A stretch of DNA of 64,000 nucleotides. It comes from Microbulbifer halophilus (lineage in GTDB: Bacteria > Pseudomonadota > Gammaproteobacteria > Pseudomonadales > Cellvibrionaceae). Positions 9,940 to 33,640 of the stretch are shown piece after piece. The stretch lies in NCBI RefSeq assembly GCF_026183675.1, contig NZ_JAPIVK010000017.1, forward strand, positions 1-64,000, in the 5' to 3' direction. The notes beneath the pieces were generated by a model, which saw only the letters and a program-made list of their open reading frames with translations, ran no database searches and was not told the DNA's origin. The position numbers and the translations under genes were made by a program. Each line of letters begins with the position of its first letter. The first letter of the stretch is position 1.

Positions 9940-9953
9940 AGCGGCCGCTTTTT
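9938..9953 (+). terminator. possible intrinsic terminator
   Basis: AAAGCGGCCGCTTTTT overlaps the SDR stop codon. It can form a short hairpin (AAAGC/GCTTT around GGCC) followed by a few T residues. The stem is short, so the call is tentative. Confidence 0.35.
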
Positions 9954-10005
9954 GGCGGATTGCGGCACGATACGGACCTGGACGGCTTCCCCGACAGGGA
10001 GCCGT

Positions 10006-10701: not shown

Positions 10702-10743
10702 AGTTTCTCCTTCGGTGGTATTCTTGCGCGACGGATAAATGGT

Positions 10744-10800
10744 AACTCAAGTTTCGGGGTTCCGGGCCGGAGCGGGCCCCTCCAACTCCGAAACCTGAAG
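10744..10800. repeat. AACTCAAGTTTCGG inverted repeat
   Basis: A left arm, AACTCAAGTTTCGGGGTT (10744-10761), pairs imperfectly with AACTCCGAAACCTGAAG near 10784-10800 around a GC-rich inner palindrome (GGGCCGGAGCGGGCCC). The same element recurs at 60061-60131 and as a half copy at 56322-56340. It lies in the promoter gap between divergent genes, where it would be transcribed as a hairpin. Confidence 0.65.
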
Positions 10801-10810
10801 CAGCAACTGT

Positions 10811-11137
10811 ATGGCAATGTATTACTCTCTGAGCGACCTGCTGTGGATCTTCGCGCTGCTTCTCGGCGGCTGGCACCTGTGGGCCGGTATGGCGGCCAAG
10901 GAGCAGGTGCGGCGCGCAGCGGCCCAACACTGCCGGCAATTGGATGTCCAACTGCTGGACGATACCGTAGTCCTGGTGCGCACCCGCCTGAAGCGCGACA
11001 GCCGCGGCCAGGTGCGGCTACAGCGCAGCTATGAATTCGAATTCACCTCCACCGGCGAACACCGCTATGCGGGTATCGCCGTACTGCACGGGCGGCGCAT
11101 CGCACAGATACAGCTGTCGCCCCACCACCTCGCATAG
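10811..11137 (+). CDS. DUF3301 membrane-anchored protein
   Basis: This 108-residue protein has a single N-terminal transmembrane helix (residues about 8-25, LSDLLWIFALLLGGWHLW) and a basic soluble part. It ends with RRIAQIQLSPHHL. The pattern fits the DUF3301 family, small inner-membrane proteins found in gammaproteobacteria with no assigned function. ATG at 10817, two codons in, is an equally good start. It precedes a DUF1653 gene by 28 bases, so the two are probably cotranscribed. Confidence 0.8.
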   Translation: MAMYYSLSDLLWIFALLLGGWHLWAGMAAKEQVRRAAAQHCRQLDVQLLDDTVVLVRTRLKRDSRGQVRLQRSYEFEFTSTGEHRYAGIAVLHGRRIAQIQLSPHHLA

Positions 11138-11165
11138 CCCGCAGCAGGCAGCAAAGGGAGCAGGC

Positions 11166-11378
11166 ATGAAACGCGGAATCTATCGCCACTATAAGGGCGA
11201 GCTTTACGAAATGATGGAAGTGGCCACTCACAGCGAGACCGGCGAAAAACTGGTCGTCTATCGCGCACTTTACGGCGACTACGGTGTCTGGGTGCGACCG
11301 CTGGAAATGTTTGCCGAAAATGTGGAAAAGGACGGATCCCTGGTCCCGCGCTTCGCTCTGTTACAAACGTTTGACTAG
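11166..11378 (+). CDS. DUF1653 family protein
   Basis: This 70-residue cytoplasmic protein shows the conserved DUF1653 pattern: GIYRHYKGELYEMMEVATH near the start, then LVVYRALYGDYGVWVRPLEM and a C-terminal RFALL. The family is very widespread in bacteria and has no proven function; a small beta-barrel fold is likely. ATG at 11166 is supported by GGGAG just upstream. It follows the DUF3301 gene and precedes a dehydrogenase-like gene on the same strand. Confidence 0.9.
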   Translation: MKRGIYRHYKGELYEMMEVATHSETGEKLVVYRALYGDYGVWVRPLEMFAENVEKDGSLVPRFALLQTFD

Positions 11379-11441
11379 CGCAATAATTCGCGACTAAGGT
11401 TGCGTCACTTTTCCAACCGATCCAGAGAACAAGGTCATTCG

Positions 11442-12509
11442 GTGAACAACAAAAAAATAATGATCTACGGTGCCTACGGTTACACCGGCGAACTGATCGC
11501 CCGGGAGGCCGTGGCCCGGGGCCTGCGCCCGATCCTGGCGGGGCGCAACTCGAAGAAACTGCAACCGCTGGCCGAGGAACTGGGGCTGCCTGCGATGGCC
11601 GTGGAGCTGGGCGCGAGCGAAACCCTCGAGCGCACCCTGCGCGATATGGACGTGGTGATTCACTGCGCCGGCCCCTTCTCCACCACCGCCGAGCCAATGA
11701 TGCGCGCCTGTATCGAGGCCGGTACCCACTACCAGGATATCACCGGCGAGATGGAGGTTTACCGGTCGGCCCATGCGATGCACAAGGAGGCCAGAGACGC
11801 GGGCGTGGTGCTCTGCCCCGGCACCGGTTTCGATGTAATTCCCACCGACTGCCTGGCGGCGGCACTGCACAAGGCCATTCCCACCGCCACGCACCTGACA
11901 CTGGGTTTCGACTCCGATTCCGGCCTCAGCCCCGGCACCGCCAAGACCTCCATCGAGAGCCTGGGCGTCGGCGGCGCTATCCGCCGCCAGGGCAAGATCG
12001 AGATTGTCGGCCACGGCGAACTGACCCGCACCATTGATTTCGGCCGCGGCGACAAGTTTGCCGTCGCCATCCCCTGGGGCGATGTGGCCACCGCCTACTA
12101 CTCCACCGAGATTCCCAATATCGAGGTGTATATCCCCATGAGCCCGCGCCGGGCGAAAAAGATGCAGCGCATGAACCGATTCCGCTGGCTGCTGGGCAAG
12201 CCCTGGGTGCAGAACTGGCTCAAGGGCAAGGTGGACCAGAAGGTGCGCGGCCCGTCCGAAGAGAAACGCTCGGAACAGAAAACCTGGGTCTGGGGCGAGA
12301 TACGCAACGACCGCCGCGGCGAACGCAGGATCGGCCGCGTGGTCACCGCCAACGGCTACGATGTCACCGTGCACGGCTCCCTGGCGGTGGCGGAATTCCT
12401 GCTCGACTACGGCGGCGATGGTGGCTACTTCACACCGTCGAAACTCTGCGGTTACGAGCTGGTGGAGAAACTGCCCGGCTCCGGTAGCATCAAGGTCGGA
12501 ATCGACTGA
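11442..12509 (+). CDS. saccharopine dehydrogenase-like NAD(P)-binding protein
   Basis: This 355-residue protein opens with a Rossmann fold (MIYGAYGYTGELIAREA) and continues with the pattern of the trans-acting enoyl reductase/saccharopine-dehydrogenase-like group, including IHCAGPFSTTAEPMMRACIE and CPGTGFDVIPTDCLAAAL. Members of this group are often oxidoreductases of unknown substrate rather than true lysine-pathway enzymes. GTG at 11442 is chosen with AAGG upstream; a TTG at 11400 would add 14 residues. No membrane segments are evident. Direct catalytic assignment is not possible from sequence alone. Confidence 0.8.
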   Translation: MNNKKIMIYGAYGYTGELIAREAVARGLRPILAGRNSKKLQPLAEELGLPAMAVELGASETLERTLRDMDVVIHCAGPFSTTAEPMMRACIEAGTHYQDITGEMEVYRSAHAMHKEARDAGVVLCPGTGFDVIPTDCLAAALHKAIPTATHLTLGFDSDSGLSPGTAKTSIESLGVGGAIRRQGKIEIVGHGELTRTIDFGRGDKFAVAIPWGDVATAYYSTEIPNIEVYIPMSPRRAKKMQRMNRFRWLLGKPWVQNWLKGKVDQKVRGPSEEKRSEQKTWVWGEIRNDRRGERRIGRVVTANGYDVTVHGSLAVAEFLLDYGGDGGYFTPSKLCGYELVEKLPGSGSIKVGID

Positions 12510-18953: not shown

Positions 18954-19340
18954 TTATATTTCCTTCAAAACTTTTATATCACCAAACACAAAGTCGCATA
19001 CTATATCCCCATCAATTTCCAGGTGATATGCATGCCCCTCAAAATGCACAGGACTATTGTCTCCTCTCCTAATTCCATACCCTAACCCATCCAAAACATT
19101 CAAACCACCGTCCCTACATTTTGTCAACCTCAAGTCACCAATCAAAAAACAACCCTCTTCATCTTCTGCTGTTTTAGAAATCCTATAAAAGGAAACCCTA
19201 TACAATTCAAGAGAAAAATTCTGAACTGATTGCCCACCCGAAAAATTCAGTCTTACCTCGCTTAAGAAGGGGGATACATTTACATCTGACAAATTATAAT
19301 TACTTGCTTCACTCAATAATTCTTGAACTTCATCAATCAT
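18954..19340 (-). CDS. probable immunity protein for the RHS toxin
   Basis: This 128-residue acidic protein has no signal peptide, so it should act in the cytoplasm. It is not a family I recognise. Its ATG at 19340 overlaps the toxin gene's stop by eight bases, and it is the next gene in the transcript, the arrangement expected for an immunity protein translated with its toxin. The sequence (for example FSGGQSVQNFSLELYRVSF and DGDIVCDFVFGDIKVL) looks like a mixed alpha/beta fold. Its DNA is markedly AT-rich, a common trait of exchangeable toxin-immunity cassettes. Cognate binding is an inference from position. Confidence 0.65.
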   Translation of the reverse strand: MIDEVQELLSEASNYNLSDVNVSPFLSEVRLNFSGGQSVQNFSLELYRVSFYRISKTAEDEEGCFLIGDLRLTKCRDGGLNVLDGLGYGIRRGDNSPVHFEGHAYHLEIDGDIVCDFVFGDIKVLKEI

Positions 19341-20238
19341 TCAACTTTTCCCCCGTACTATGTTTATCAGTCCTTTTTCCATTCTTATCATATCTTGGAC
19401 GATACTTTCTGCCACCACCCTTGGGCGCTTCTTTTGGACCAGTTCTTACAATTTCACCATCAGGGCGAATTTGTACACGGCTTCCATCAGGATGATACCA
19501 CTTATCATATCCACCTTCTGTTTCCCCTTTATGCTCAAACCCTGATTCCTCAAGCGTTTTACCCCCTTCTTCTCTACCTTTTCCCGTTAAGTCAGGCAAG
19601 CTTTCAACTGCCGAGGAATCAGAGTTGCCGTCTGTCCTCGCGTCCCTACCCGAAGCCTTTTCACTATCGTCTGCACTTTCGCTATGGAGAAGGCTACCGG
19701 TTCCATCAATTAGTCTGTCACCCAAACCACGAACGGCGTTACACCATGGATTCGATGAGCCACCACAAGCTCCGTAAGCAATTATAGCTCCACCAAAGAA
19801 AACCCCTGCTCCTGCTGCAACAGACGTTCTCCCATCCGGGTCCACATATTTATATGGATTATTATTTGCATGAGCATACCGATTAAACATCATCGGGTTG
19901 CTGTCAGCGTGATCCAACACCGTAGCAGGATCCATCTGAAGAAATCGCTGCAGGTCAGGATCGTAGGAACGGGCCTTCATATAAATAAGGCCCGTATCAT
20001 CGTCGTGCGTATGCCCAGTGTACCCTACCGCCCTGTTTTCAGGTTGCCCATCCTGGCGCTTGCCGCCATAGGGCAGGTAGCTTTTACGCCAGACCAAATC
20101 GCCACTTTCATCCGAGGCGGCTACCACCGATCCGGCGGCATCGCTATGCAAGTAGGTAACGGTGACTTCTGCCTGGGAGACTGCTGAAATCACAAGCAGA
20201 AGGACTATGAAAACGATGTTTCTTATTAGGCTGCTCAT
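19333..20238 (-). CDS. secreted RHS-core tip with C-terminal toxin domain
   Basis: This 301-residue protein begins with a signal peptide (IVFIVLLLVISAVSQA, cleavage near residue 23). It goes straight into the tail of an RHS core: TYLHSDAAGSVVAASDESG, GYTGHTHDDDTGLIYMKARS, YDPDLQRFLQMDP, NRYAHANNNPYKYVDPDGR (ending near residue 137). After a small hydrophobic stretch and a polar linker comes a toxin-like C-terminus (about 215-301) with WYHPDGSRVQIRPDGEIVRT and RKYRPRYDKNGKR...HSTGE, which resembles polymorphic toxin type 17 domains from memory, probably an RNase. It is truncated compared with complete RHS proteins and appears to complement the giant gene at 23293-32892. AAGGAA precedes the ATG. 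Confidence 0.85.
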   Translation of the reverse strand: MSSLIRNIVFIVLLLVISAVSQAEVTVTYLHSDAAGSVVAASDESGDLVWRKSYLPYGGKRQDGQPENRAVGYTGHTHDDDTGLIYMKARSYDPDLQRFLQMDPATVLDHADSNPMMFNRYAHANNNPYKYVDPDGRTSVAAGAGVFFGGAIIAYGACGGSSNPWCNAVRGLGDRLIDGTGSLLHSESADDSEKASGRDARTDGNSDSSAVESLPDLTGKGREEGGKTLEESGFEHKGETEGGYDKWYHPDGSRVQIRPDGEIVRTGPKEAPKGGGRKYRPRYDKNGKRTDKHSTGEKLND

Positions 20239-20272: not shown

Positions 20273-21169
20273 TTAGCGAATCGCAGAGATTTCGGTTGTC
20301 AATGAGATCTGGTTTCCATTGATGTCATAGTATTTGCTGCCCTGATAGTGCTTTTGCCAGTAATCGGTTTGTGCATTGGCTTGGGGTAGCTCCGAGATCA
20401 GGGCAATATCCAGTTCCTGTAGTTGTTCCTGGGCCAATCCTTCTATTGCAGTCAGGTATACCCGCACTTCGGTGCTGCCGGAGTCAGCTGTGGTCTGTTG
20501 AGTGTTGAAGTCGATATGCTCGAGTCCAGGTATCTTTTTTATCACTGCCGCCTGTTGGGGTTGGCCGATAGTCGCATCTACATTGCTTGTATGTGGAATC
20601 ACAAAGCGGTGCTCCACTGCCGCCAGTTTGTGATCTGCCAGGTTGCCGGTTACGGATGCCAGTGCCTGGGGTGCCGGTTCGATGGTGTCCGGATCGAGAT
20701 TGAGGTCGCTGAGTTCCTTGGGAGATCCCAACCCGGGCACCACTTCGAGGCTGACCGTTTTGTCGCTGGCGAAGTAATCCGGCGCGGTCAGGGTCAGGGA
20801 GGCGGTGCCGCTGGCCAGGGCCGGCGCGGCGGAGGAAAGTGGGTCTACCAGGTCAATCGCCGCCAGCCACAGGGCATTGGGGTTTTCCTGTCGCACCTTG
20901 CTGGTGGGGTCCGCGTAGATTTTGAATACCTGCCGCAACTGGACGTCGTATTGCTCACCGGTGCTGTCGGTGATTTGGGCGCCTATCTGGTGCCGGCGGA
21001 GGATGGCGGTATTGGCCGATCCGGCGTCTTCGCCGAGGTCGTCGGCGGAGAGGGAGACGATGACGGTGTCGCCACTGCGCACGGTGGCGGTCAGGGCTTC
21101 TTCCTTGCAGCCGCTCAACAGGGTGACAAAGGCCGTCAGGATCAAGGCTTTCGCAAAGAGAGTTTTCAT
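20273..21169 (-). CDS. lipoprotein of the RHS operon, unknown function
   Basis: This 298-residue protein starts MKTLFAKALILTAFVTLLSG followed by Cys, a clear lipoprotein signal with the lipobox LLSGC, so it should be anchored in a membrane after export. The mature part contains long stretches of polar and beta-prone residues, including a segment on bacterial Ig-like or secreted-protein style (ATVRSGDTVIVSLSADDLG). No known domain is recognised. ATG 21169 follows AAGGAA; an upstream in-frame start would add 12 residues. It lies 4 bases after the dockerin/cohesin-like gene in transcript order and 34 bases before the tip gene. Confidence 0.75.
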   Translation of the reverse strand: MKTLFAKALILTAFVTLLSGCKEEALTATVRSGDTVIVSLSADDLGEDAGSANTAILRRHQIGAQITDSTGEQYDVQLRQVFKIYADPTSKVRQENPNALWLAAIDLVDPLSSAAPALASGTASLTLTAPDYFASDKTVSLEVVPGLGSPKELSDLNLDPDTIEPAPQALASVTGNLADHKLAAVEHRFVIPHTSNVDATIGQPQQAAVIKKIPGLEHIDFNTQQTTADSGSTEVRVYLTAIEGLAQEQLQELDIALISELPQANAQTDYWQKHYQGSKYYDINGNQISLTTEISAIR

Positions 21170-21173
21170 TTCC

Positions 21174-22163
21174 TTATTCCCCACTCGGTTGTTCGTCTTG
21201 GTCAAGGCCCATTGCCCGGCGCTGGATGGCTACGACGTCGCCCAGGTCTATGTGGCCGTTGGTATTGGTATCACCGTGCCCGGGCTCCAGTTGTGTTTCG
21301 GTGGCCTCTTCCAGGCCCACGGCGATGCGTTTGGCCAGGAGGACGTCTGCCAGGTCGACGATACCATCGTTGTTGATGTCGCCGTGCCGGTAGTTGGGGT
21401 CGGTGCCCCGGCTGGATTCCTCGAGGTTAGTGAGGCCGTCTCCATCGCGGTCCTGGTGGGCGTCGGCGGCATTGTAGGGGTCCAGTCCGAATGCCCGTTC
21501 GTAGGTGTCCGGCATGCCGTCGGCGTCGCTGTCTTCGGCGGCCCTGGCCAGTTGCTGCGTCGTTGCGGGCTGGGTCGGGGCGGTAACGGTGATTATGCCG
21601 TCTGTGACGGTATGGGGGATGCTTTCGCCACCGATAATGCCGTCCGGCAGGGCCGCCAGGGGACTCAGGAGATCGAGGGTCTCGACGTCCAGGGTGATGT
21701 CGCCGGAGGCGGCCAGGAGTTGGAAGGGCACGGCGGCCACGTCGACCAGGCCCGTGGGCGAGGCCTCGGCGGTTTGGCTGGCAGTCAGGACCAGTTTCTC
21801 CTGCCCTGTGCCCGTGGCTTCGACGTGGGCCGTCTGATCGTCGGCGAATTCGGCGGTGCTGCCGCCCGGCGTGCTATTGGCCTCGAGTACCGGCGCTACC
21901 TGGGCCGGGTCGTAGGTGATTGCCAGGCGCAGGGCACCGAGGGCGGCATCGATTGCGTTCCCGTCCTTGTCCTGGTAACTGACCCCGGACAGGTCGACCC
22001 GGACCGGCACGGATAGCACCGATTGCGGTTCGCCCTCCAGGCCGGTGCCGAGGTGGACCGCGGCGGTGCCGGTAATGGGGGACTGCTGGGCCAGTGCCGC
22101 GACGCTGAACGGCAGTCCCAGGCAGAGTCCCAGAATAAGCGGTTTCCTTGCGATGAGGCTCAT
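21174..22163 (-). CDS. secreted protein with cohesin-like and dockerin-like modules
   Basis: This 329-residue protein has a signal peptide (LILGLCLGLPFSVAALA, cleavage after residue 25). An N-terminal segment of about residues 30-195 (VPVRVDLSGV, LRLAITYDPAQVAPV) has the look of a cohesin beta-sandwich. Residues about 211-260 carry calcium-binding TSP3/EF-like acidic repeats (DSDADGMPDT, DRDGDGLTN). Two canonical dockerin-type repeats follow (GDINNDGIVDLADVLL and GDTNTNGHIDLGDVVAIQR, about 261-320). Such modules bind partner proteins in calcium-dependent, high-affinity fashion. Its start overlaps the preceding gene's stop by four bases (ATGA), so it is tightly coupled. Confidence 0.75.
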   Translation of the reverse strand: MSLIARKPLILGLCLGLPFSVAALAQQSPITGTAAVHLGTGLEGEPQSVLSVPVRVDLSGVSYQDKDGNAIDAALGALRLAITYDPAQVAPVLEANSTPGGSTAEFADDQTAHVEATGTGQEKLVLTASQTAEASPTGLVDVAAVPFQLLAASGDITLDVETLDLLSPLAALPDGIIGGESIPHTVTDGIITVTAPTQPATTQQLARAAEDSDADGMPDTYERAFGLDPYNAADAHQDRDGDGLTNLEESSRGTDPNYRHGDINNDGIVDLADVLLAKRIAVGLEEATETQLEPGHGDTNTNGHIDLGDVVAIQRRAMGLDQDEQPSGE

Positions 22164-23293
22164 GGGGTGGGCTCCTCCGGCAGGTCCTCTGCGCTGATGC
22201 TGCCGACCAATAGGGCCTTCAGCCTGTTGAGGTCTTCCTGGTCGATCTCCGGCGACATGGACAGGCTGTTCAGGCCTTCCTCCTTGAACAAATCACATAG
22301 CACCGGGTGGAAGGCGATCTGTTGCTGGAAGTCCGGTTGCGGGGCCTGGTCGACCACCCAGTGCAACAGGAGCTGGTCGTAGCCGCCCACGGTGCCGCTC
22401 AGGTTGCAATCCCCCAGAGAGGCCTCGTTGAGCGCGATCACTTCCCCGGTGCCGCTGGCGGCCGCCACGCCCTTATAGGCGGTGGTGCTGCCCGAACTGC
22501 CGCGGTAGAGGCGCACCAACGCGGCTTCGCCAAAGTCCCCTCTTTCCGCTACCAGCGACGAGCCATGCACCCGCAGCAGGCCGCCTGCAGATTCGGCGTA
22601 GAGGTTGTTCAGGTCGACCATGGCGCTGGGCGCCTGGATACCATCCCCGACGAAGGCACTGACCGGGTACCGGGCGCCCTCCAGGGCGACGATCACAAGA
22701 TCCCCCGCGCTACCGGCTTCTGTATCAATCACCAGTTGGTCGTTGAGGTACATTCGTGTGTTGCCGCTGCCGCTATCCAGTGCCGTGTGCATGGCGCTGG
22801 CACTGGTTGTAACAGTAAGCGCGGCGGCATCAAGGTCATCGCAAAAGCCAGCCCCCGAGCCAGGGCAGATAGTTGTCTCTTCGGAGGCCTCCGAAGTCGC
22901 GGATGGTCGCAGGTAGTATGTGGTCTCAGGATCCAACCCTCTAGCCTCCAGTTTCACGATCAAGCGCCCCCTGGCGGAGCTGGCTATGCCCTCCTTGGAA
23001 TGCTTGCGAAACTGTCCACTTATGGTCGGATCTCCCGTATGAACCGGGTAGGCCTCTACCTCTACACTGGGGACCAGACTACTAGCCTCCTCATCCATAT
23101 AGACCTTGAGATCAGGAATCGCAGGTTCCGATATCGTAAATATCACCGCAAGCGACCTATCGGTAACATCCGACACAATCAGATCCGATATCTCAGTAGT
23201 CGCCGCTTGGCCTAAGACAGGGAGCGCCAAACAGGCTGTGAACAGATACAGAACCTGCTTCAGTCCCTTGTGTCTTCGATAAATCCTGTTCAT
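22160..23293 (-). CDS. secreted protein with Fn3-like and degenerate dockerin-like parts
   Basis: This 377-residue protein has a signal peptide (VLYLFTACLALPVLGQA, residues about 14-30). Its first half looks like a fibronectin-III-type or similar beta domain (ISDLIVSDVTDRSLAVIFTI, LEARGLDPETTYYLRPSA). Near the C-terminus, GDCNLSGTVGGYDQLLLHW resembles one dockerin repeat. A second, degenerate one may follow (residues about 330-365, IDQEDLNRLKALLVG). Its start overlaps the giant gene's stop codon by one base, and it is overlapped by the next gene too, so the three are a translationally coupled set. The function is inferred as a secreted adaptor or scaffold. Confidence 0.65.
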   Translation of the reverse strand: MNRIYRRHKGLKQVLYLFTACLALPVLGQAATTEISDLIVSDVTDRSLAVIFTISEPAIPDLKVYMDEEASSLVPSVEVEAYPVHTGDPTISGQFRKHSKEGIASSARGRLIVKLEARGLDPETTYYLRPSATSEASEETTICPGSGAGFCDDLDAAALTVTTSASAMHTALDSGSGNTRMYLNDQLVIDTEAGSAGDLVIVALEGARYPVSAFVGDGIQAPSAMVDLNNLYAESAGGLLRVHGSSLVAERGDFGEAALVRLYRGSSGSTTAYKGVAAASGTGEVIALNEASLGDCNLSGTVGGYDQLLLHWVVDQAPQPDFQQQIAFHPVLCDLFKEEGLNSLSMSPEIDQEDLNRLKALLVGSISAEDLPEEPTP

Positions 23294-26200
23294 TACTCTG
23301 TCACCTCCACGCTGAGCTCTCTGGTCTCTTCAACCACCATAGCCTGGTTTGAATCATTAAAGGTGTACGTTATCGAAAGATCGTAGACACCGGGGCTGGC
23401 CGCCGAATTGACTGAGACATCGTATTCCAATATCCAGGTAAGTTCGCTGGCCACTGGCGTCAGACTCAGGCTCGAGAGAGTAAGGTTGTTGATTGCGTCC
23501 GCACTACCCGAATAATTCAGGTCCAAGCCGGCAACCGCGTAGAAGTCACTCTCGCTCATCGGGAAGGATTCCGAGGTCCTTGTAGTCTCTCCTACCGGAA
23601 TAACCAGGTCACCACCCGAGGATTGCGAACTGAGGTTCACGGTGACTTGGTCCGTGGAAGTCAGCTGTCCTTCTCCTGTCGCAACTACCGTGACAAGATT
23701 GGAGCCTTCCTCCAGCGTTATATCGGCACTAAAGGTACCCTCATTGCCGGTAGCCGGGGTGACAACTGCAGCCTGCCCATTCACGGTCACCATCGCATTC
23801 GCATCCGCAACCGATCCAGATATCGTCACTATAGGTGTGGTTACAGTTTCTCCATTGTTGTGAGAGTTCACTTGTACCGTGGGAGGCCCAGCTTCGGGAA
23901 GCACAACCTCTACATTGATATTCCGCACCTCGGTGTGTATTACCGTAGAGTCCGAATCGAGGAAGTTGTAGGAAACCGGTACGGTATAATTCCCGGGTGT
24001 CACATCCGTATCTGCTGAAATCTCGAATTGGATATTCCAGAGATCCTCGTTCCAGTCTTGGCTTGACCGGTAATATTGGATTCCGATCCCATCTGGCAAG
24101 GCATCCGGAACCAATTGAACCGATGATGCTGCGTCAAACACGGTAGGCTCCAAGGCAATGCTTTCGCTTCTCAGGATTGCGGATCCGGGAATTAGCCGGT
24201 TTTCATCAGTAACCGTGAGATCAACCATCACTATTTCACGGAATCTTAAGTTGGAATCTGCATCCATGAATTTCATGATTACAGGGAAGTTATAGATACC
24301 AGGATCAGCGTCATCGCTGATATTCAACTCCAAGGTTGCGACTATTCGATTATCGGGTAACTTTTCAATCGATGACCAGTACGAATACTGCTCATCCGGC
24401 CTCCCTTCTCCAAAGGAATAAAACACTTGCCAGGCGCTATTGAATAAATCCGTCGTAGTGGTGAATTCATGCCGGAAGTATGTTTTTCCAGAGCTTGCCA
24501 CCAGGACCTCCCTCGGCAGCTCGCTGCTCTGGTAAAAGAGATTCAGGGTCCGGGTAGTGGTTTCGGCATGGGCTCCTGGCCCCTTCGCCGTGATCTCGAT
24601 CACGTTATCGCCTTCGAACAGGTCCAGATGCTCCATTGTGAATCCTGAACCCTCCAGAGGCATTTCAATACCGTCGATCGTCAGGCTCTCCACCGGGTTG
24701 ACCACGGTGCCCGTCAACACGATCGGGCTCTGGGTGACCACCTCTCCCTCGGTGTGCGAGGTTACCGTAATGACAGGCGCCGGCGGCGGCGTCAAGACGA
24801 CGGTGCGGGTTGCTATGGGATCCAGGTATCCCGGCGCGTAGAACTCCAGGAGGTTGTCCCCCTCCTGCAGCAAGGTCGACTCCCAAGTGTAAACAGTACC
24901 CTCCCCGACCGGCGAAGGTTGAGCCTCACCGTTCAGGTACATCGTCAGTCCCGGAGTTTCCGAGCCGGATTCCGCAACAATATCCACTGGATCGACGCTG
25001 ATCACTTCCTGCTCGTCATGAGAGGTGACATCCAGCGTGGGTACCGGCTGGGAAACCACGTTCAAGGTGTAGGTTTCACTGGCCGTCAGCCCATTCAGGC
25101 TCTCCACTTCCACATGGATGTCATTGGGGCCTTCGTTCAGCTCGAGAACCGCCGTATAGGTATGGTCCGTGTACGGCAGGTTGCGAATCTCCTCCATCTG
25201 CGCCTGGACGCCGTTGATGACGACCTGCGCGGAGGAGTCGTTGCTGACGCGAACGGCAACACCAGTGGTTGTGCTGGGCACCGTCTCCCCATCCGTATGC
25301 GAATAGAGCTGGATATCCGGCGGGTCCCGACTCTCCACAACGGTGAGTCTGACCGGGATTTCCATGTAGGGATCGAATCCACCCATGATCTCAGGGGCCC
25401 AGTCCACCGTGAAATCGTATATACCGGAGACTATAGGATTGCCCTGGGCGGCCTGCAGCTCGATGCCAAATTGGTGGCCCATGGTCTTGTAGGGTGAAGT
25501 TTCCCCGACCTCCAGATCGACACTGGCATTGTGCCGCTGCACAAATGCCGGTGCTCCCTGGAATACGATGTCGCTGGCGGTCAGGTAACTGATGACTCGG
25601 CTGGCCGGGAAGTTTTCCGTATGAATCGGCTCATTCGTGAAAACCTCTCCGGGAGCCAGCATCACGTCGTAGGCGTGCGTATTGAAATTGACGGATTTTA
25701 CCCTTGTTAAACTGGGGTTTTCGCCAATCGCTTCGACCTGAAGAGTGCCGGGGGTGAGGTCGACGGGGTGGGAGTAGATTCCGCCCTCGAAGTGTTCGGG
25801 AACCTCGCCATTGACCCTGATCTCATCGACGGACGCCGAGTAATGGCCGGACACCAGGCCCGTGGAATAGTAGATATCCGCATTTTCCACCGGGGAGTCA
25901 ACGGTAAACTCCGGCGGCACCGTGGAAACCGGCACATCGTAGCTGACGAGGAAGTCCGCGGAGTACAGCGCCGCGTCGTCGCCGTCGCGGAAAACCAGTT
26001 CGACGGTCGCGTCGTAGGCGCCAGACATGCCGTTGAGCACCTCAACGTCGATGGACGTCTGCAGCCTGTTTCCAGCGACACCGGGCGAGGGATCGCTGGC
26101 CGTGGCCTGGATCTCCAACTGGTGGCCGAAGGTACCTCTATTCCCGGCTTCGTATACTGCCACGTCCCCGATCCTGGATTGCGGAAAGGCAACGTCATCC

Positions 26201-29200
26201 AGGGCCTCGGAGACCAACCCGGGGTTCGCGGTGGCTATCGCCAGTCGGCGCACTTCCAGGTCGATTTCTCTGGAGTCCAGCAATTCTCCATCCCTGAAGG
26301 CTTCCACCGTCAGGACATGCTGCCCCTCATCGAGTTCCAGCCTGTCATCGTAGCTCGCATAGTCGCAGTGTGGACTGGACTCCTGGCCAGTATTCTCGCA
26401 CAGATAACCAAACCTGAAGCTTCCGCTCTCCAGTACCGCAGGCCTGCCGTTTACGCGGATCTGGTCAATGCTCTCGTGCACAGCCCCGAACACCATGGGG
26501 TTACTTTGATAGGTGATCTGCCCGTCGACGTGCGATTCAACCTCGAGTGTCCAAGGCTGCTCCACATCCAGTGTGATGGTGGATCGAGTCACCAGATTAT
26601 CGAGGTTGGTCACCGCTACTTCTACGCTACGAGTACCACCTTCGAGAGGCAGGTCGATGGTAAAGGTGCCGTCGCTCACATTGGCCGGCTCTCCGTTCAC
26701 TTCCACACTCACAGTATCCGTCCCCACGGTACCGCTAATGGTCACGAGTGCCAGAAATTCCCCATCAACGTTCACGGGAAACCCCTCGACTGCCTGGCCA
26801 CCGGTATGGGAATCAATCGAGAGGTCCGTGTGCTCCGCGGGGGAGGCGATCGAGGCCGCTGTCTGTGCGTGAACGATATACGCTTCGTTGTTGTTCACCG
26901 GGAAGTCCACACCAACCGGGGCGCCATCCATCCAGGTGGCCGATTCGTACCGGCCCGTCCCCCTGTTGTAGCGTTGTACGCTGCTGACGACGCTCTCGCC
27001 GCCCAGGTGCGACAGCAGATCGAAGGCACTGAATTCACCGGAGATACAGGAGAAACCGATGAGGTTGATGCCCTGTTCGAGGTTTGCAGTGGGACATACG
27101 ACCTCGCCCTCGAAAGCATACTGCAACGACTGCTGGGCATGCACAACATAGCCCTCGCCCGACTGGATGGTGAAATCCTGCCCTTCGGCTACACCGTCAA
27201 CGTATTCGGCAGAGACGAAACTATTGGAGGAAGAGTCGTACTTCTCTATCTTCGATATCACGCCGTCCCCACCCAGATTATCGAGAAGCTGGAAGGCGGT
27301 GAGCCCATCGGGGATTGCAAAAGGATAGTGAAACAGATTTATGCCGGTGGCCAGGAAGGCCTCGCTCTGATAGGGATCAGTTCCCGCGATAACTTCCATG
27401 GCGTTGCTGACGCCGTCGAAGTCGTAGTCTTCGTCTCCGTCGAGGATACCATCACCATCGGAGTCCGGAAGCTTGGCATTGGAAGCAAAGAGCGCTTCGT
27501 TATTGTCGTTGATTCCATCTCCATCCGTGTCGGCCTCGGTCAGCGAGGTACCGGCGATATATTCGTCCAGGTTGGAAATGGTATCGCCATCGGTGTCCAA
27601 AACAGCATCCGCGCCATCGTTGGGGTCCAACCCGAATACATATTCCGAGCAATCCGGTATTCCGTCGGAATCGCTGTCTACCTGCGGGTTGTAGACGCTA
27701 TTTGCGCTTCGGCAGAGGTTGCCCGAGCCGAAACCGTCCCGGGCAAACTTAGGCCAGGGAGTAGACGCCAGGCCGCCGTTGTCGTTCACGAAGGCCTGGA
27801 CCCTACCGTTCCTGTCCCCGATGTAGACAGTTCCGTCTATATCGATGGCCGGAGGACTCAATAGCAAATAAGCGTCTGTATATTCCCACTTCAGGTTTCC
27901 ATCCGGGTTCAACGCATACAGGAAGCCGTTTGCTGTCCCAAAATAGACGGTGCCATCTTCCGCTATCACGGGCGTAAATGGCGTTCCCAAGGGATCGTAT
28001 TCCCACAGCAACTGTCCGGCCCGGTCAAGAGCAATCAGTTCGCCGTGGGCGGTACCGGCATAGACTGTATCGTTCTGGCCAACCACCGGGGACCACCAGT
28101 TCGAGGAACTTGTCTCGGATCCCGTGTCGTACTTCCACTTCAGCTCGCCGTCTTTTGTCAGGGCATACAGGAAGCCATCGTCCGCATAAAAATAGATATC
28201 CCCGTTCCGTCCGATCGCGGGCGACGAATCCACCGGGCCATCGGTGCCATATTGCCACTTGAGGTCGCCGTCGGGAGTGAATGCCATCATAAATGGAGCG
28301 GGTAGATCCAGGATGACCCTCCAGCCTCCGACATAAATCGTGCCATCTGCGCCGACGGCGGGAGAGGATAGAAACCCGGCACCAACGTAGTTCTGCGGAT
28401 GGGTGCTGTAATTCCAACGCAGAGTTCCATCTTCGTTGATCGCGTACAGCTCCCCATCGTAGGAGGCGACGTAAATGGTACCGTCAGTACCGATACTCGG
28501 TGATGTCTGAATATTTCCATAAGTCTGGAAATTCCATTTCTCGGTACCATCCGGGTTGACTGCGTACAGCTTGCCGTCATCGGAACCTACATAAATGGTA
28601 CCGTCCAGGCCGATGACCGGGGTCGACAGCACTTCATCGCCGGTCTGGAATCTCCACTTCTCGCTGCCGTCGGGATGGAAGGCATGGAGATAGCCATTCC
28701 GGGCGCCGACATACAGGTTTCCGTCGGCATCCAGGCTCAGCGCCTTGTCGATAGCCCCACCCGTGTTCGCATACCAGGCCAGAGAGCCATCCGAGGGGAA
28801 ACCGGACACGCTGCTCAGGTCGGAGCTGGTGAGGCTTTCCTGCCGGTTGCTATAGCCATCTTCATCCAGGTCCAACCTGCCGTCATCGGGATCCAGTGCA
28901 TTGAGGCCGAATGCCTGCTCGTCGCCATCATTAACGCCATCGTGATCCGAGTCGTACAGGAGCAGATTCGAGCCGGCTGCCGTTTCGTCGCTGTCGTTGA
29001 TCCCGTCATCATCGGTATCCGCCAGCAGGGGATCGGTTTCCTGAAGGGCGACTTCGTCTCCGTCGGAAACACCGTCTCCATCCGTGTCCACTGAAAACAG
29101 AAGGGTTCCCTGTGCCACCTCCTCGAGGTTGGTCAAGCCATCGCCATCACTGTCCAATGTAGCGTCCTGGGGATCGTTGGGGGCCAGGCCAAGTCTGGTT

Positions 29201-32200
29201 TCCAGGCAATCGGAAATACTATCCGCATCGGTATCCAGTTCTGAATCCATTTCCTGATCCACTGACTGGGCAACCAGCAGGTCTCCCAGACGGATGTAAC
29301 TTTTAGTCGAACACTCGGCGAACTCTTCCTCGAAAAGCAGTGTCCCAGTCTGGGTATAGACACTGAAGCTGTTCTGGTAGCTGCCCTTGATACGTTCAAG
29401 GTAACGGTGACCGTTGCCGTCATAGAAATAATTTTTTGTCGAACCTCCTGTGATCGCCGCCACCAGCCTGGAGGCGTGGTCATAACGATATGACTTCGTG
29501 TCATGCTCCGACACATACCCACTGGAATTCAGGTCGTATTGTGACTTCCTGGTGACGTTTCCCAGGGGGTCGAAATCCATGAACTTGAGCTCGGCATTGT
29601 TCCGTAGTTGCTTCAGCTTGGCGTTTCTGTAGAAGTAGTTCGAGCTGGTTCCGTCCAGGCTCCGGGTCTGAATATCACCGAAGGTATTGTAGCTGTAGTC
29701 GAGAGTACCCCACGGTCCGGATACCTGCCTTAGCCTGTTGATGCCGTCGTAACTACCGGCCTGATCCATCAAGACGTTCTGTGAGGAATTTATGGCGTCG
29801 ATGATCGATGTGACGTTTCCGGTATCATCGTAGCTATAGGTAAGATCCACTAGGCCATCCACCGATACCGTCTCGGGGAAAAGGCGCTGATTCAGCGTAA
29901 ACTGAGCGACCTTTCCATTACCGTAAGTAAAGGACTCTATCTGCCCGGACGGATAGTAGCTGACGTTTTCCGCATAGCTTCCGACCTTTGTGGGACGTCC
30001 CAGGTTATTGGGCGCATAGTCGATATAGAGCGAGTTCGGGTAGGTAATGCCTGCCAGAAAATCCAGGGTATTATAGTCGTAGTGAAAGGCATAGCTACGC
30101 GAAATGTCCGAGTTTATGGTGAGGATTTCATCGGTAAGGTTGTTGTTATTATCATACTGGTAACTCCAGGAGGACTCTCCCGCAATTAAACCAGTCAGAT
30201 TTCCGTTGTCGTCATAGGAAAAGTCTGTATCGAGGGTGCTTCCCGGATAATCGACGAAAGTCAGCCTGTCCAGATCGTCATATTCATAGGTTGTCGTCCT
30301 GAATTCCTCGACTTGGCTAGATTTAAGGTTGCCGACAAGATCATAGGTATAGTGGTTTGTGCCTATTTCCGGATCACTCTTCGACTCAAGAAAGTACTTT
30401 TCATTATACTTGTATTCTCTCCGAATCCGCCCCGAATCGCCATACTGCCATATTTCATAGGGCTGGTTGAGAAGATTCCTCTTAAATTTAGTCGTAACCG
30501 ATTCCGGTTGATCTACTCTCAAAAGCGATGAATCGTCTAGGCCAATATTACGGTTACGATAGGTCGTAACGTTTCCGCGCTCATCAACAACTTCTGTGAT
30601 TTCATCGTCATAGGATTTCGATACGTAGGTCCCATCCGAGTTCGATTTCTTTACCACCCTTCCCAGGGCATCGTAGTCGTAACTTATCCCTCCCGACTCG
30701 ACCTCACCATAGGGGTCGGATTCATAGACTTTCCTGCCCAATGCATCCAGTTCAGTGCGCTGGGATATAGCCTCTCCGGTTTGCGTATCACTCCGCGTTG
30801 TCTTGATCAACCTTCCGAGGCTATCGAACTCATCAACTTGCTTGAAGCCACCCCGGGTCAAGGTTCTATAAAAACTGGAGTAAGAGATTGAAACGTCGTC
30901 ATATATCGGAAAATCGATTCCCGTCAAGCGGTTAAGGTCATCATAGGAGAAACTGGTGGTAATCCCTCTCCCGTCAGTTATCGAAGAAACTGTGCCTGTA
31001 TCATTGATGTGCCTGCCAATAGAAACATTCTCTGGTCGGTTTTCCTGTTGCGCTATGCCACGCTTGTAATCGGAAAAGTAAGTGGTATTACCATTGGCAT
31101 CTGTTACATTTTGCACATCCCCGGCGCTAGTATACTCATAGCCAGTGTCAACACCGTTTGTTGTCTCCTGCTTCAGTTGTCCAAGCTCATCGAAGACCCT
31201 TGTAGTCAGTGATGTGTCACCATCCATGGTCGACTCTTCACTGGTAACCTTTCCCAATATCCATTTGGCCGTGTCATTGCTGTACTCGTAGGTCGTAGTT
31301 CTGTATTCGTCGTCTCTTGAGTAATTATTAAATTCCCGTACTACTGTCGGATTCCCGAAGTCATCATGGCCCGAGTATTTCGTGATCCTAGAAACGGTAA
31401 CTGTTCCATCTCCATTAGCCCCAAATTCGCGTTCGGCTTCGCTATCGTAACCATGTCCTTCGGACACGAGGAATGGAGCAAAGGTGGCAAACTCTGTCCA
31501 CCAAGTCCGATAGGGACTACCATGTATCATACTCTCATTTGAAATTTTCCTGGTATCCCAATTCAGAAACTTACTAAATAGCAGGTTTCCCCGCTTGTCA
31601 TGAGTAAGCTCTTTAGCCAGCAGACCGACCCAGGACGGCTTGATAAAATGGTATTGATCCACCGATACCCACCGGTAATCCTTGCCATAATGATAATATT
31701 CCGTGACATCATCAGGAGATGTAATAGTGGTTTTATCGTATCTAAGGGTTTCCCCCTCCATTGGGACACTATGAGGTTCGAAAACATAGGTCCAGTCTCC
31801 GCTGGCTATATCCCTTCCGGAGACATGCTTGGTTTCAATGGCAGTGGTTCTCAAACTGCTGCCATGATCAAACCTCACAAACTGATAGATGTAGTCTATT
31901 TCCGCACCATCCGGATACTTGACCTTCTGAAGCGAATGGCTGCCGACGCCGTCTTCCGGAAGCTCGTCGTCAGGGTCCGGATCGGGCGCTACACCGAAGT
32001 ATGTATACTCCCAATACTTGTTATCTGGCCGGGTTACACGCACAAGATGATGGGCGGGGAACATGTATCCGGGAATTTCTTCATACTCGTAAGTCCAAAC
32101 CTGGCCATTCGCCGTAATGGTATCCAGCAAGCGAAGACCATCTTCCGTTACTTGATACTCATAAGTAACTACCGGCTCGCTTCCCCCTTCCTCACTACGA

Positions 32201-32892
32201 TAGATATTTTTTATGTAGCTGGCGCCATTGTCTGCACTTTCGTATTCAATGCTTATCCAGTTTCCATTAACATCCTCGATTCGGGTTGTAAACCAGCTCG
32301 GCTCACCTTCGAAAAAGTCGAAATGGTCCATTGTATACTTGGTGCCGTCTGGTGAGGAAACCACCATACCTGGCTCGCCTGCGGTACAATCTGCTCTCCA
32401 GTTGCTTCTTGTAATCAGGCTGCCATCCCCCAAAACGCTATTCAGAACCAGCAACTCCCGCGCTCCGTCTGGATGTTCCAGAGAGGGGTTGTCGGCTGTG
32501 TTAACCTGGTAGGTATCCTGGTTACAAATCTTTTGCTGGTCATCTTTCGGCGCCACTATGCGGCCGAAGTGCATAACCCAACCTACCCCGTAGGAGGTAC
32601 GCTTCGGGTATTCGTTGGTCTGCAGGCTGGTATAGACCCTATTGATATTGATATCCATGCCACCGTTCCCGGGGACATGAATATCGGTATACTTAAGCTG
32701 CAGCGTTCCGGAAAACGGGTCTATGTGTTCGTTAAAGTTCTGGTTGATTGTTTCCTTGAACGGGTTCAGGCCTGGCTCGGCATAATAATCCCTGATTTCC
32801 TCTGCAAATGAAAACGTCGAAGCAGCCATAAACCCTACTGCCAACCAGATCCTCCGGCTTGTAATCCCATTTTCCGCCCTTAAGAAATACAA
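23293..32892 (-). CDS. giant secreted RHS/YD-repeat protein with PQQ-propeller and Ig-like regions
   Basis: This 3199-residue protein has an export signal (RRIWLAVGFMAASTFSFA). Residues about 30-1205 are RHS/YD repeats, such as YDDLNRLTGIDFP, YDALGRVVKKSNSDG and YDGNGHRYLER, ending in SYIRLGDLLVAQS. Residues about 1215-1370 have acidic calcium-binding TSP3-like repeats (DSDGDGLTNLEEV). About 1370-1720 is a PQQ-type beta-propeller region (GTIYVGSDDGKLYAVNPDG). About 1735-1840 is a second TSP3-like region. About 1845-2015 has two GINLF/GINLIGF-type repeats. From about 2015 to the end are Ig-like repeats (VNSHNNGETVTTPIVTISG). It lacks the RHS core tip and toxin, present in the gene at 19333-20238. 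The start is a TTG without an obvious ribosome site; a TTG at residue 17 after CGGAGG is an alternative. Confidence 0.88.
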   Translation of the reverse strand: MYFLRAENGITSRRIWLAVGFMAASTFSFAEEIRDYYAEPGLNPFKETINQNFNEHIDPFSGTLQLKYTDIHVPGNGGMDININRVYTSLQTNEYPKRTSYGVGWVMHFGRIVAPKDDQQKICNQDTYQVNTADNPSLEHPDGARELLVLNSVLGDGSLITRSNWRADCTAGEPGMVVSSPDGTKYTMDHFDFFEGEPSWFTTRIEDVNGNWISIEYESADNGASYIKNIYRSEEGGSEPVVTYEYQVTEDGLRLLDTITANGQVWTYEYEEIPGYMFPAHHLVRVTRPDNKYWEYTYFGVAPDPDPDDELPEDGVGSHSLQKVKYPDGAEIDYIYQFVRFDHGSSLRTTAIETKHVSGRDIASGDWTYVFEPHSVPMEGETLRYDKTTITSPDDVTEYYHYGKDYRWVSVDQYHFIKPSWVGLLAKELTHDKRGNLLFSKFLNWDTRKISNESMIHGSPYRTWWTEFATFAPFLVSEGHGYDSEAEREFGANGDGTVTVSRITKYSGHDDFGNPTVVREFNNYSRDDEYRTTTYEYSNDTAKWILGKVTSEESTMDGDTSLTTRVFDELGQLKQETTNGVDTGYEYTSAGDVQNVTDANGNTTYFSDYKRGIAQQENRPENVSIGRHINDTGTVSSITDGRGITTSFSYDDLNRLTGIDFPIYDDVSISYSSFYRTLTRGGFKQVDEFDSLGRLIKTTRSDTQTGEAISQRTELDALGRKVYESDPYGEVESGGISYDYDALGRVVKKSNSDGTYVSKSYDDEITEVVDERGNVTTYRNRNIGLDDSSLLRVDQPESVTTKFKRNLLNQPYEIWQYGDSGRIRREYKYNEKYFLESKSDPEIGTNHYTYDLVGNLKSSQVEEFRTTTYEYDDLDRLTFVDYPGSTLDTDFSYDDNGNLTGLIAGESSWSYQYDNNNNLTDEILTINSDISRSYAFHYDYNTLDFLAGITYPNSLYIDYAPNNLGRPTKVGSYAENVSYYPSGQIESFTYGNGKVAQFTLNQRLFPETVSVDGLVDLTYSYDDTGNVTSIIDAINSSQNVLMDQAGSYDGINRLRQVSGPWGTLDYSYNTFGDIQTRSLDGTSSNYFYRNAKLKQLRNNAELKFMDFDPLGNVTRKSQYDLNSSGYVSEHDTKSYRYDHASRLVAAITGGSTKNYFYDGNGHRYLERIKGSYQNSFSVYTQTGTLLFEEEFAECSTKSYIRLGDLLVAQSVDQEMDSELDTDADSISDCLETRLGLAPNDPQDATLDSDGDGLTNLEEVAQGTLLFSVDTDGDGVSDGDEVALQETDPLLADTDDDGINDSDETAAGSNLLLYDSDHDGVNDGDEQAFGLNALDPDDGRLDLDEDGYSNRQESLTSSDLSSVSGFPSDGSLAWYANTGGAIDKALSLDADGNLYVGARNGYLHAFHPDGSEKWRFQTGDEVLSTPVIGLDGTIYVGSDDGKLYAVNPDGTEKWNFQTYGNIQTSPSIGTDGTIYVASYDGELYAINEDGTLRWNYSTHPQNYVGAGFLSSPAVGADGTIYVGGWRVILDLPAPFMMAFTPDGDLKWQYGTDGPVDSSPAIGRNGDIYFYADDGFLYALTKDGELKWKYDTGSETSSSNWWSPVVGQNDTVYAGTAHGELIALDRAGQLLWEYDPLGTPFTPVIAEDGTVYFGTANGFLYALNPDGNLKWEYTDAYLLLSPPAIDIDGTVYIGDRNGRVQAFVNDNGGLASTPWPKFARDGFGSGNLCRSANSVYNPQVDSDSDGIPDCSEYVFGLDPNDGADAVLDTDGDTISNLDEYIAGTSLTEADTDGDGINDNNEALFASNAKLPDSDGDGILDGDEDYDFDGVSNAMEVIAGTDPYQSEAFLATGINLFHYPFAIPDGLTAFQLLDNLGGDGVISKIEKYDSSSNSFVSAEYVDGVAEGQDFTIQSGEGYVVHAQQSLQYAFEGEVVCPTANLEQGINLIGFSCISGEFSAFDLLSHLGGESVVSSVQRYNRGTGRYESATWMDGAPVGVDFPVNNNEAYIVHAQTAASIASPAEHTDLSIDSHTGGQAVEGFPVNVDGEFLALVTISGTVGTDTVSVEVNGEPANVSDGTFTIDLPLEGGTRSVEVAVTNLDNLVTRSTITLDVEQPWTLEVESHVDGQITYQSNPMVFGAVHESIDQIRVNGRPAVLESGSFRFGYLCENTGQESSPHCDYASYDDRLELDEGQHVLTVEAFRDGELLDSREIDLEVRRLAIATANPGLVSEALDDVAFPQSRIGDVAVYEAGNRGTFGHQLEIQATASDPSPGVAGNRLQTSIDVEVLNGMSGAYDATVELVFRDGDDAALYSADFLVSYDVPVSTVPPEFTVDSPVENADIYYSTGLVSGHYSASVDEIRVNGEVPEHFEGGIYSHPVDLTPGTLQVEAIGENPSLTRVKSVNFNTHAYDVMLAPGEVFTNEPIHTENFPASRVISYLTASDIVFQGAPAFVQRHNASVDLEVGETSPYKTMGHQFGIELQAAQGNPIVSGIYDFTVDWAPEIMGGFDPYMEIPVRLTVVESRDPPDIQLYSHTDGETVPSTTTGVAVRVSNDSSAQVVINGVQAQMEEIRNLPYTDHTYTAVLELNEGPNDIHVEVESLNGLTASETYTLNVVSQPVPTLDVTSHDEQEVISVDPVDIVAESGSETPGLTMYLNGEAQPSPVGEGTVYTWESTLLQEGDNLLEFYAPGYLDPIATRTVVLTPPPAPVITVTSHTEGEVVTQSPIVLTGTVVNPVESLTIDGIEMPLEGSGFTMEHLDLFEGDNVIEITAKGPGAHAETTTRTLNLFYQSSELPREVLVASSGKTYFRHEFTTTTDLFNSAWQVFYSFGEGRPDEQYSYWSSIEKLPDNRIVATLELNISDDADPGIYNFPVIMKFMDADSNLRFREIVMVDLTVTDENRLIPGSAILRSESIALEPTVFDAASSVQLVPDALPDGIGIQYYRSSQDWNEDLWNIQFEISADTDVTPGNYTVPVSYNFLDSDSTVIHTEVRNINVEVVLPEAGPPTVQVNSHNNGETVTTPIVTISGSVADANAMVTVNGQAAVVTPATGNEGTFSADITLEEGSNLVTVVATGEGQLTSTDQVTVNLSSQSSGGDLVIPVGETTRTSESFPMSESDFYAVAGLDLNYSGSADAINNLTLSSLSLTPVASELTWILEYDVSVNSAASPGVYDLSITYTFNDSNQAMVVEETRELSVEVTE

Positions 32893-33325: not shown

Positions 33326-33640
33326 TACCCCTCTCAAAGTCAGGTGCTCTATTAAATAATTACACGTGAATTTTACGAAAATATTTCAAAGAAAATAAAC
33401 TTATTGACGCAGCTTCCTCATTTGACACCACAAGCGAAATCATTGATACAACAAAACCGTGAACCAATTATCATTTCAGTTGTTTCGCATCTAAAATTTT
33501 TCCACGATCACTATCTTCTTTTATTCGTTTTTAGATAAAAAACCTTTAATACTTCAACAACATGGAACTTATGTCAATTACAGGCTATTACACGACCTTG
33601 CACTTCAAGTCTCTGGATTAAGGTATGCACTCTTGGCCAT

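What the first reader, a model, noticed from the sequence alone, without database searches (positions are those of the whole stretch)
20273..23293. Cohesin/dockerin-like secreted proteins inside an RHS operon
Two consecutive, overlapping genes encode exported proteins with dockerin-type repeats (GDINNDGIVDLADVLL in one, GDCNLSGTVGGYDQLLL in the other), and one also has a cohesin-like N-terminus plus TSP3-like calcium repeats. Such modules mediate high-affinity calcium-dependent assembly in cellulosomes. Here they lie between the two halves of a split RHS toxin and next to a lipoprotein, which fits a surface scaffold that holds the pieces. I know of no described RHS system of this kind.
Basis: partly seen in the sequence, partly recalled or inferred. 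Interest (0 to 1): 0.75.

Follow-up and report, generated by a model that had tools for sequence, protein, structure and literature searches.

The report
Two-piece RHS toxin with separate tip
A marine bacterium encodes a protein-cage toxin as two separately exported pieces, a cage and a swappable toxic tip, a layout found in a number of related bacteria; the cohesin/dockerin-like genes noticed between them are a rare add-on of a few species and are probably not what holds the pieces together.

Summary
P329 (21174-22163) has a real tandem dockerin with intact calcium loops, TSP3 repeats, and an N-terminus resembling a cohesin by fold (weakly) but not by sequence. P377 (22160-23293) has one dockerin-like loop and no dockerin domain. 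The split RHS is real and is the main result: the 3199-aa gene is an RHS shell that stops at the strand before the Rhs core; the core plus a variable C-terminus is a separate 301-aa gene with its own signal-peptide-like leader, followed by a putative immunity gene.

Of 37 chosen loci with such short tips, 29 show a core-less shell upstream, 23 with no ORF between. A named Alteromonas plasmid has the same pair. P377-P329-P310 lie between shell and tip in only three loci, all Microbulbifer, so they are a lineage-specific accessory. Tips occur in arrays with shared cores and differing C-termini.

Best reading: a trans-split, Sec-exported RHS polymorphic toxin with a self-standing tip cartridge, working like TcB/TcC but cut closer to the toxin, decorated in Microbulbifer with surface modules and a lipoprotein. 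New variant of a known kind. Shell-tip binding, export and toxicity are inferred, not shown.

The parts
23293..32892 (-). Core-less RHS shell protein, 3199 aa, signal-peptide-like N-terminus; RHS/YD shell aa 26-1195, then TSP3, BamB/PQQ-type beta-propeller, TSP3, Glucodextran_B/Ig-like repeats
29308..32817 (-). RHS/YD shell part of the giant (aa 26-1195), ending at the strand SYIRLGDLLVAQ before which a one-chain RHS protein would go on to the core
   Evidence: match of shell profile to solved Rhs and teneurin-like chains
22160..23293 (-). P377: exported-looking protein, 377 aa; one dockerin-like loop (GDCNLSGTVGGYD) but no dockerin domain; four Cys (143, 151, 296, 333) invariant in 3 homologues
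21174..22163 (-). P329: exported-looking protein, 329 aa; cohesin-like N-terminal domain, TSP3 repeats, tandem dockerin
21651..22091 (-). Cohesin-like domain of P329 (aa 25-171)
   Evidence: fold, low-confidence model; not by sequence
21393..21533 (-). TSP3 calcium repeats of P329 (aa 211-257)
21207..21389 (-). Tandem type-I-like dockerin of P329 (aa 259-319), both Ca loops intact in 4 homologues
20273..21169 (-). P310: lipoprotein (lipobox LLSGC, +2 Lys); start moved to the conserved MKTL (the listed ORF starts at 21205)
19333..20238 (-). Separate RHS tip gene, 301 aa: own signal-peptide-like leader, Rhs-associated core, variable C-terminus (putative toxin)
19828..20169 (-). Rhs-associated core (plug) of the tip, aa 24-137
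19336..19827 (-). Variable C-terminus of the tip (aa 138-301), putative toxin, no family match above cut-off
18954..19340 (-). Putative immunity gene, 128 aa, overlaps the tip gene by 8 bases; no family match

Best explanation
This is a trans-split RHS polymorphic toxin. One gene encodes an exported RHS shell that lacks the Rhs core. A second gene, with its own Sec-type leader, encodes the core (plug) joined to a variable toxin, followed by its immunity gene. The two chains are exported separately and should join outside the cytoplasm, the tip closing the shell and placing the toxin inside it, as TcC does with TcB. The toxin is then freed by the Rhs core (DPxG motifs present) or, in a relative, by a HINT domain. 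Each tip is a complete cartridge (start codon, leader, core, toxin, immunity), so cartridges can be swapped or accumulate beside one shell. In Microbulbifer the shell gained a TSP3/propeller/Ig tail and three genes (P377, P329, P310 lipoprotein) that most likely tether the complex at the outer membrane or bind a surface or target cell with calcium-stiffened modules. Shown by sequence: gene order, missing core in the shell, leader-bearing tips, differing C-termini, arrays, the dockerin in P329. Inferred: shell-tip binding, encapsulation, export route, toxicity, immunity, the anchoring role.
For: The last shell strand (YxYLG..LVA-like) is visible in 26 of 28 shell ORFs printed (not printed for L155, and in L161 it lies in the next ORF); in L139, L149, L151 and L153 the protein stops just after it. 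Tips start with a leader and then the next strand (VTYLHTDALGS): 41 of 49 core-bearing ORFs in 39 chosen loci fit, against 1 doubtful case of 58 in 44 other Microbulbifer RHS loci (some control loci overlap). Of 37 loci with a short tip, 29 show a core-less shell upstream; in 23, from 11 families of the order, no ORF lies between (L039). In solved one-chain proteins the shell and core profiles match neighbouring segments: 8uy4 934-1243 and 1297-1407, 9ifo 1690-2007 and 2036-2143. Tip cores of different Microbulbifer genomes are 68-96% identical, their C-termini 18-29%. L161 has five tandem tips, cores 86-97%, C-termini 19-36% where comparable. The L077 tip has PT-HINT 1.4e-22. L039 and L041 share 96.8% over 1893 nt up to the end of the core. 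The pair is annotated as two genes on Alteromonas mediterranea pAMEDUM8_300.
Against: No binding, secretion or toxicity data. Loci were picked from the best matches of a profile that includes the leader columns, which favours this class. In 8 of 37 loci no shell was seen (contig ends or truly lone tips), and beyond the order shells were recognised in only 3 of 10 regions read. The two tips of L041 differ less (C-termini 66% alike). The window's tip C-terminus and its putative immunity protein match no family. No outer-membrane exporter was looked for. The leader test is a crude hydrophobicity rule. The AlphaFold models of P329 and P377 are poor, and no shell-tip model was made.
Confidence: 0.66

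Rival explanations
1. One reading: P329 and P377 bridge shell, tip and lipoprotein through calcium-dependent cohesin-dockerin binding.
For: P329 has a true dockerin with intact Ca loops and a cohesin-like fold at low confidence. The order P377-P329-P310 is kept in the 3 Microbulbifer loci seen with a shell. The best fold matches are cohesin modules of C. perfringens glycoside hydrolases (titles).
Against: 26 of 29 shell+tip loci lack these genes. P377 has no dockerin domain. L096 keeps the cohesin-like domain without a dockerin. No cohesin over the cut-off with PF00963 in 4 genomes.
Confidence: 0.15
2. Orphan tip: the small RHS gene is a displaced, silent cassette, the usual RHS orphan, and the giant gene is an RHS-derived adhesin that no longer delivers toxin.
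For: Cassettes with P310 3' fragments lie in L041 and a lone P310 fragment in L039; classical leaderless orphans are common in the genus.
Against: Tips begin with a leader at a fixed point just before the core and directly follow a core-less shell at 23 loci in 11 families. In the control loci 18 of 19 ORFs with a core near the start have no leader. L186 shows both kinds side by side.
Confidence: 0.12
3. TSP3 and dockerin repeats are plain EF-hand-like decoration that stiffens surface proteins; P377-P329-P310 are adhesion modules unrelated to toxin assembly. (This concerns the accessory genes only and can hold together with the best explanation.)
For: Matches to P329's TSP3 stretch are common: 55 of 244 genomes of the order, own included, match P329. 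P377-like N-termini are fused to TSP3-rich giants in G249 and G297. L096 has P377-P329-Ig modules with no RHS seen on its 3.5-kb contig.
Against: Both dockerin halves keep the Ca ligands and the tandem spacing, more than decoration needs; parts of P329 and P310 accompany tips in the L041 array.
Confidence: 0.35

Closest known systems
TcB/TcC (BC component) of ABC/Tc toxins
   Same: RHS shell made of two polypeptides; the second brings the Rhs core and a hypervariable toxin; several C proteins, including one from an orphan locus, can arm one B shell (PMC11067744 passages; Tc chains among the PDB matches of the tip profile)
   Different: The Yen C proteins share about 680 N-terminal residues (PMC11067744), the tip here only about 115 after the leader; both chains here have signal-peptide-like N-termini; no SpvB match in the giant; TcA was not looked for
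One-chain RHS polymorphic toxins (WapA type, T6SS PAAR-Rhs)
   Same: YD shell, Rhs core, variable C-terminus, small gene downstream
   Different: Shell and core are on separate genes; no PAAR match; leaders consistent with Sec export
Bacterial teneurin-like proteins (TLP)
   Same: YD-shell relative, polymorphic C-terminus, adjacent immunity gene, extra adhesion domains (PMC13018210 passages)
   Different: The passages seen describe shell and toxin as one protein; the tip matches TEN_YD-shell only weakly (0.0011)
Non-cellulosomal cohesin/dockerin modules (A. fulgidus 2xdh; C. perfringens 2vo8, 2w1n)
   Same: Cohesin-like fold, one true dockerin in P329
   Different: Cohesin not supported by sequence; no partner known; here in an RHS toxin operon

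Membership tests
Type I dockerin (PF00404) | Profile match in P329 | tested here: met
   20.4 bits, slightly below the 22.9 cut-off in hmmscan; 32.5 bits, over the cut-off, with neighbours in the frame; 18 of 23 PDB matches are cellulosomal or named dockerins
Type I dockerin (PF00404) | Two F-hand Ca loops with ligands at 1,3,5,12 in P329 | tested here: met
   invariant in 4 homologues
Type I dockerin (PF00404) | Profile match in P377 | tested here: not met
   no Pfam dockerin at E<=10; dockerin HMM at most 1.1 bits, hhalign Prob 1.3
Type I dockerin (PF00404) | Binds a cohesin with Ca | not testable with these tools
   needs protein
Cohesin (PF00963) | Sequence profile match in P329 | tested here: not met
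Cohesin (PF00963) | Cohesin fold | tested here: inconclusive
   best VIA-align rows are cohesins, Z at most 7.9, model pLDDT 42
Cellulosome | Multi-cohesin scaffoldin with dockerin enzymes | tested here: not met
   own genome: 4 Dockerin_1 matches at E<=10, two of them in P329, one marked over cut-off; no cohesin over cut-off
RHS polymorphic toxin | RHS shell | tested here: met
   RHS_repeat 2.3e-24
RHS polymorphic toxin | Rhs-associated core | tested here: met
   TIGR03696 75.4 bits in the separate tip
RHS polymorphic toxin | Hypervariable C-terminus | tested here: met
RHS polymorphic toxin | Toxic C-terminus and cognate immunity | not tested
   a small ORF follows the tip; function untested
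RHS polymorphic toxin | Shell and core in one chain | tested here: not met
Tc toxin (TcB/TcC) | SpvB domain in the B protein | tested here: not met
   giant has no SpvB match at E<=10
Tc toxin (TcB/TcC) | TcA injector | not tested
   not searched
T6SS PAAR-Rhs effector | PAAR domain | tested here: not met
   no PAAR match in giant or tip

The most novel reading that the evidence does not exclude
A widespread, so far unnamed class of Sec-exported RHS toxins whose payload is loaded in trans: one shell gene is served by several complete tip cartridges, each with its own leader and immunity gene, so a cell could carry a mixed arsenal at once and change it by expression alone, without the recombination that classical RHS orphans need. 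In Microbulbifer the loaded shell is further built into a lipoprotein-anchored, calcium-dependent surface complex through P329.
Probability: 0.4. Interest if true: 0.8.

Novelty: new variant of a known kind. Interest (0 to 1): 0.6.

Why it matters
As far as I know, RHS shells wrap their toxin as one chain except in Tc toxins. A common envelope-exported version with a separate tip would mean that shells can be armed after export, that toxin switching need not involve gene rearrangement, and that a natural, minimal split point exists in the RHS fold. It would also explain RHS genes without a core and short RHS-core genes that are now annotated apart. The dockerin-bearing Microbulbifer version would be an unusual case of a cellulosome-type module in a toxin operon.

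Tried and rejected
Structure prediction of P329 and P377 gave poor models (mean pLDDT 42 and 39) from only 3 and 2 sequences of permitted sources. The Foldseek list for P377 shows mostly antibody and MHC-like Ig folds and no dockerin in its 50 rows; it is not used further. The query with whole P329 was dominated by TSP3 and was replaced by its N-terminal domain; a partial match of G006 over residues 61-251 was not followed up. The single genome-contig scan gave two named loci. The lipoprotein matched no PDB chain. Plasmid hits L184 and L185 are ordinary one-chain RHS genes and do not support the split. In the 10 regions from other families (L187-L196) a shell was recognised beside tips in 3 (L188, L192, L194), and L195's tip has no leader. 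Idea rejected: assembly or frameshift artefact; the same break recurs at 23 pairs with different shells, though single shells do look broken (L142, L161). Idea rejected: P310 is the immunity protein; it lies before, not after, each of the five Microbulbifer tips.

Caveats on counts: 34 regions were fetched from the matches listed (105 of 390 genomes at E<=1e-15; the list was cut short). I chose mainly strong, short-ORF matches. With window, L038, L039, L041 and L077 this makes 39 loci. L145 and L154 hold one-chain relatives and were left out of the 37. The 8 of 37 without a visible shell are L041, L140, L150, L156, L157, L159, L164, L165. In L161 the ORF between shell and tips carries the missing last strand and TSP3, so it is probably the end of the shell in another frame. 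The leader test is a crude hydrophobic-stretch rule, not SignalP.
Full report
Observation. The minus-strand operon reads: giant RHS 23293-32892 (3199 aa), P377 22160-23293, P329 21174-22163, P310 (listed ORF 20273-21205), RHS tip 19333-20238, small ORF 18954-19340. Neighbours overlap or are at most 34 bases apart. The conserved start of P310 is the internal MKTL, giving 20273-21169.

Domains. P329 has TSP3_bac (7.4e-5) and Dockerin_1 (6.1e-4, two stretches). Over the frame the dockerin reaches 32.5 bits. A profile of four homologues finds 23 PDB sequences at E<=10, of which 18 are cellulosomal proteins or named dockerins (best 2ccl_B 0.0016). Its Ca ligands are invariant in four homologues. 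The N-terminus is not a cohesin by sequence. A poor model matches cohesins best: Foldseek rank 1, E 0.026, VIA-align ranks 1-5, Z 7.9 to 7.4, 28 of 50 rows by my count. The tool's own note says that Z under 8 may mean a common arrangement, so I call it inconclusive but suggestive. P377 has only one dockerin-like loop. P310 has an invariant CKEEAL after its lipobox; Lys at +2 would fit the outer membrane by the E. coli Lol rule (recalled).

Relatives. Of 144 genomes of the family, own included, P310 occurs in 4 and P377 over its length in 3 (two more match remotely), the 4 and the 3 all of the same genus, which two named contigs identify as Microbulbifer. The five-gene order is the same in L038 and L039 (the L039 shell runs on into L040). 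L041 has P329 (3' part)-P310-tip and a second P310 (3' part)-tip. Outside the genus, one of 390 genomes of the order has a strong match to the cohesin-like domain (G418; one more is marginal, E 0.008). There a P377 homologue (35%), a P329 homologue (31%, no dockerin) and a gene like giant 1841-2362 lie in a row on a 3.5-kb contig. A P377 profile matched 1 other of 224 genomes.

The split. The tip has a signal-peptide-like leader, then the Rhs core (75.4 bits), then a variable end. The giant has no core. A profile of five tips matched 105 of 390 genomes of the order at E<=1e-15; of 29 matches better than 1e-30, 27 lie in ORFs of 154-489 aa and two in long ones. I fetched 34 regions. With the window, L038, L039, L041 and L077 these 39 loci hold 49 core-bearing ORFs: 41 have a hydrophobic leader shortly before the core, 8 do not. 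Among 58 core-bearing ORFs of 44 other Microbulbifer RHS loci, 1 met the rule and is doubtful (some loci overlap, so a few ORFs count twice). Of 37 loci with a short tip, 21 have a YD-rich core-less ORF within 60 bases upstream, 5 have it 0.4-3 kb away, and 3 more are seen otherwise (L039; L158 and L162): 29 in all. In 23 no ORF lies between (21 plus L158 and L162, the latter with 114 bases); these come from 11 families by the labels. In 3 one ORF intervenes (L141, L160, L161; in L161 it looks like the shell's own end). In 3 the P377-P329-P310 genes intervene. In 8 no shell was seen.

Where the cut falls. A last strand like YIYLG..LVA is visible in 26 of 28 shell ORFs printed; then TSP3 or other tails follow, or the protein stops (L139, L149, L151, L153). 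Tips resume with VTYLHTDALGS-like strands. In solved one-chain proteins the two profiles match neighbouring segments 53 and 28 residues apart (8uy4, 9ifo). G370 (L145) is a one-chain relative. The shells closest to the window's outside the genus, L148 (6e-198) and L151 (4e-190), have their tip directly adjacent and no accessory genes, so the accessory block was probably gained in Microbulbifer.

Polymorphism. Between Microbulbifer genomes tip cores are 68-96% identical and C-termini 18-29%; the two tips of L041 are alike at 100 and 66%. L039 and L041 share 96.8% over 1893 nt to the end of the core and then differ. L161 has five tandem tips, one of them cut short within the core; L041, L132, L143, L150 and L159 have two. 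One tip has a pretoxin HINT domain (1.4e-22); one has HNH-like matches (Pfam HNH 0.074; IscB model 3.7e-5). The window's own tip C-terminus has no family match above cut-off.

Named example. Alteromonas mediterranea pAMEDUM8_300, typed as conjugative, carries an 'RHS repeat protein' overlapping an 'RHS repeat-associated core' protein of 249 aa that begins with a leader and the core, and nearby a leaderless orphan beside Imm27. In the phylum sample, 21 of 398 genomes (own and G384 included) match at E<=1e-24; of 10 regions read from six of these genomes, 3 show a shell beside the tip.

Mechanism. Most likely the tip closes the shell after export and carries the toxin inside. This is by analogy to YenB/YenC3, where a C protein from an orphan locus joins the shared shell and its C-terminal part is cleaved but stays with the complex (PMC11067744 passages). 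Binding, export route and toxicity are not shown. The Microbulbifer accessory genes most likely anchor or extend the complex.

Literature. Searches for dockerin/cohesin with Rhs and polymorphic toxin, split Rhs terms, Microbulbifer and TSP3 listed no paper on such a system among the titles and abstract starts shown (lists were capped at 8-20 rows of up to 283 papers). Passages were seen of PMC13018210, PMC11067744 and PMC3482391; the rest are listings. The library lacks most subscription papers and preprints. That C. perfringens glycosidases assemble by cohesin-dockerin binding is recalled; only PDB titles were seen.

Noticed in passing
L161 (G068:C1:1605500-1625400), 195-8365: Five tandem leader-bearing tips with nearly the same leader and core and differing C-termini (one cut short within the core), downstream of one core-less shell that looks broken into two ORFs.
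   Followed up: partly
L077, L133, L134, L138, L144 shell C-termini: Several TSP3-tailed shells end in a short hydrophobic stretch right at the stop (such as FNLGAFIAIISTTLH), perhaps a membrane or assembly signal.
   Followed up: no
L186 (Alteromonas mediterranea pAMEDUM8_300) 4955-12354: A split RHS pair on a plasmid typed as conjugative, with a second leaderless orphan tip (polymorphic toxin type 10) and Imm27.
   Followed up: partly
L096 3-3512 and L100, L101: Modules of P377, P329 and the giant's tail occur in other gene splits and fusions (P377-like N-termini on 3548- and 5168-aa TSP3-rich proteins).
   Followed up: partly
L039 13878-15095: The P377 homologue of G343 has an internal duplication around its cysteine loop (405 aa against 377).
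   Followed up: no
window 32927-33337 and 33814-35844: A 136-aa ORF without Pfam match and a histidine kinase/response regulator pair lie upstream of the shell on the same strand; possible regulators.
   Followed up: no
G000, 8 matches of TIGR03696: The own genome carries further RHS-core genes, and 41 of 48 Microbulbifer genomes searched have at least one.
   Followed up: no
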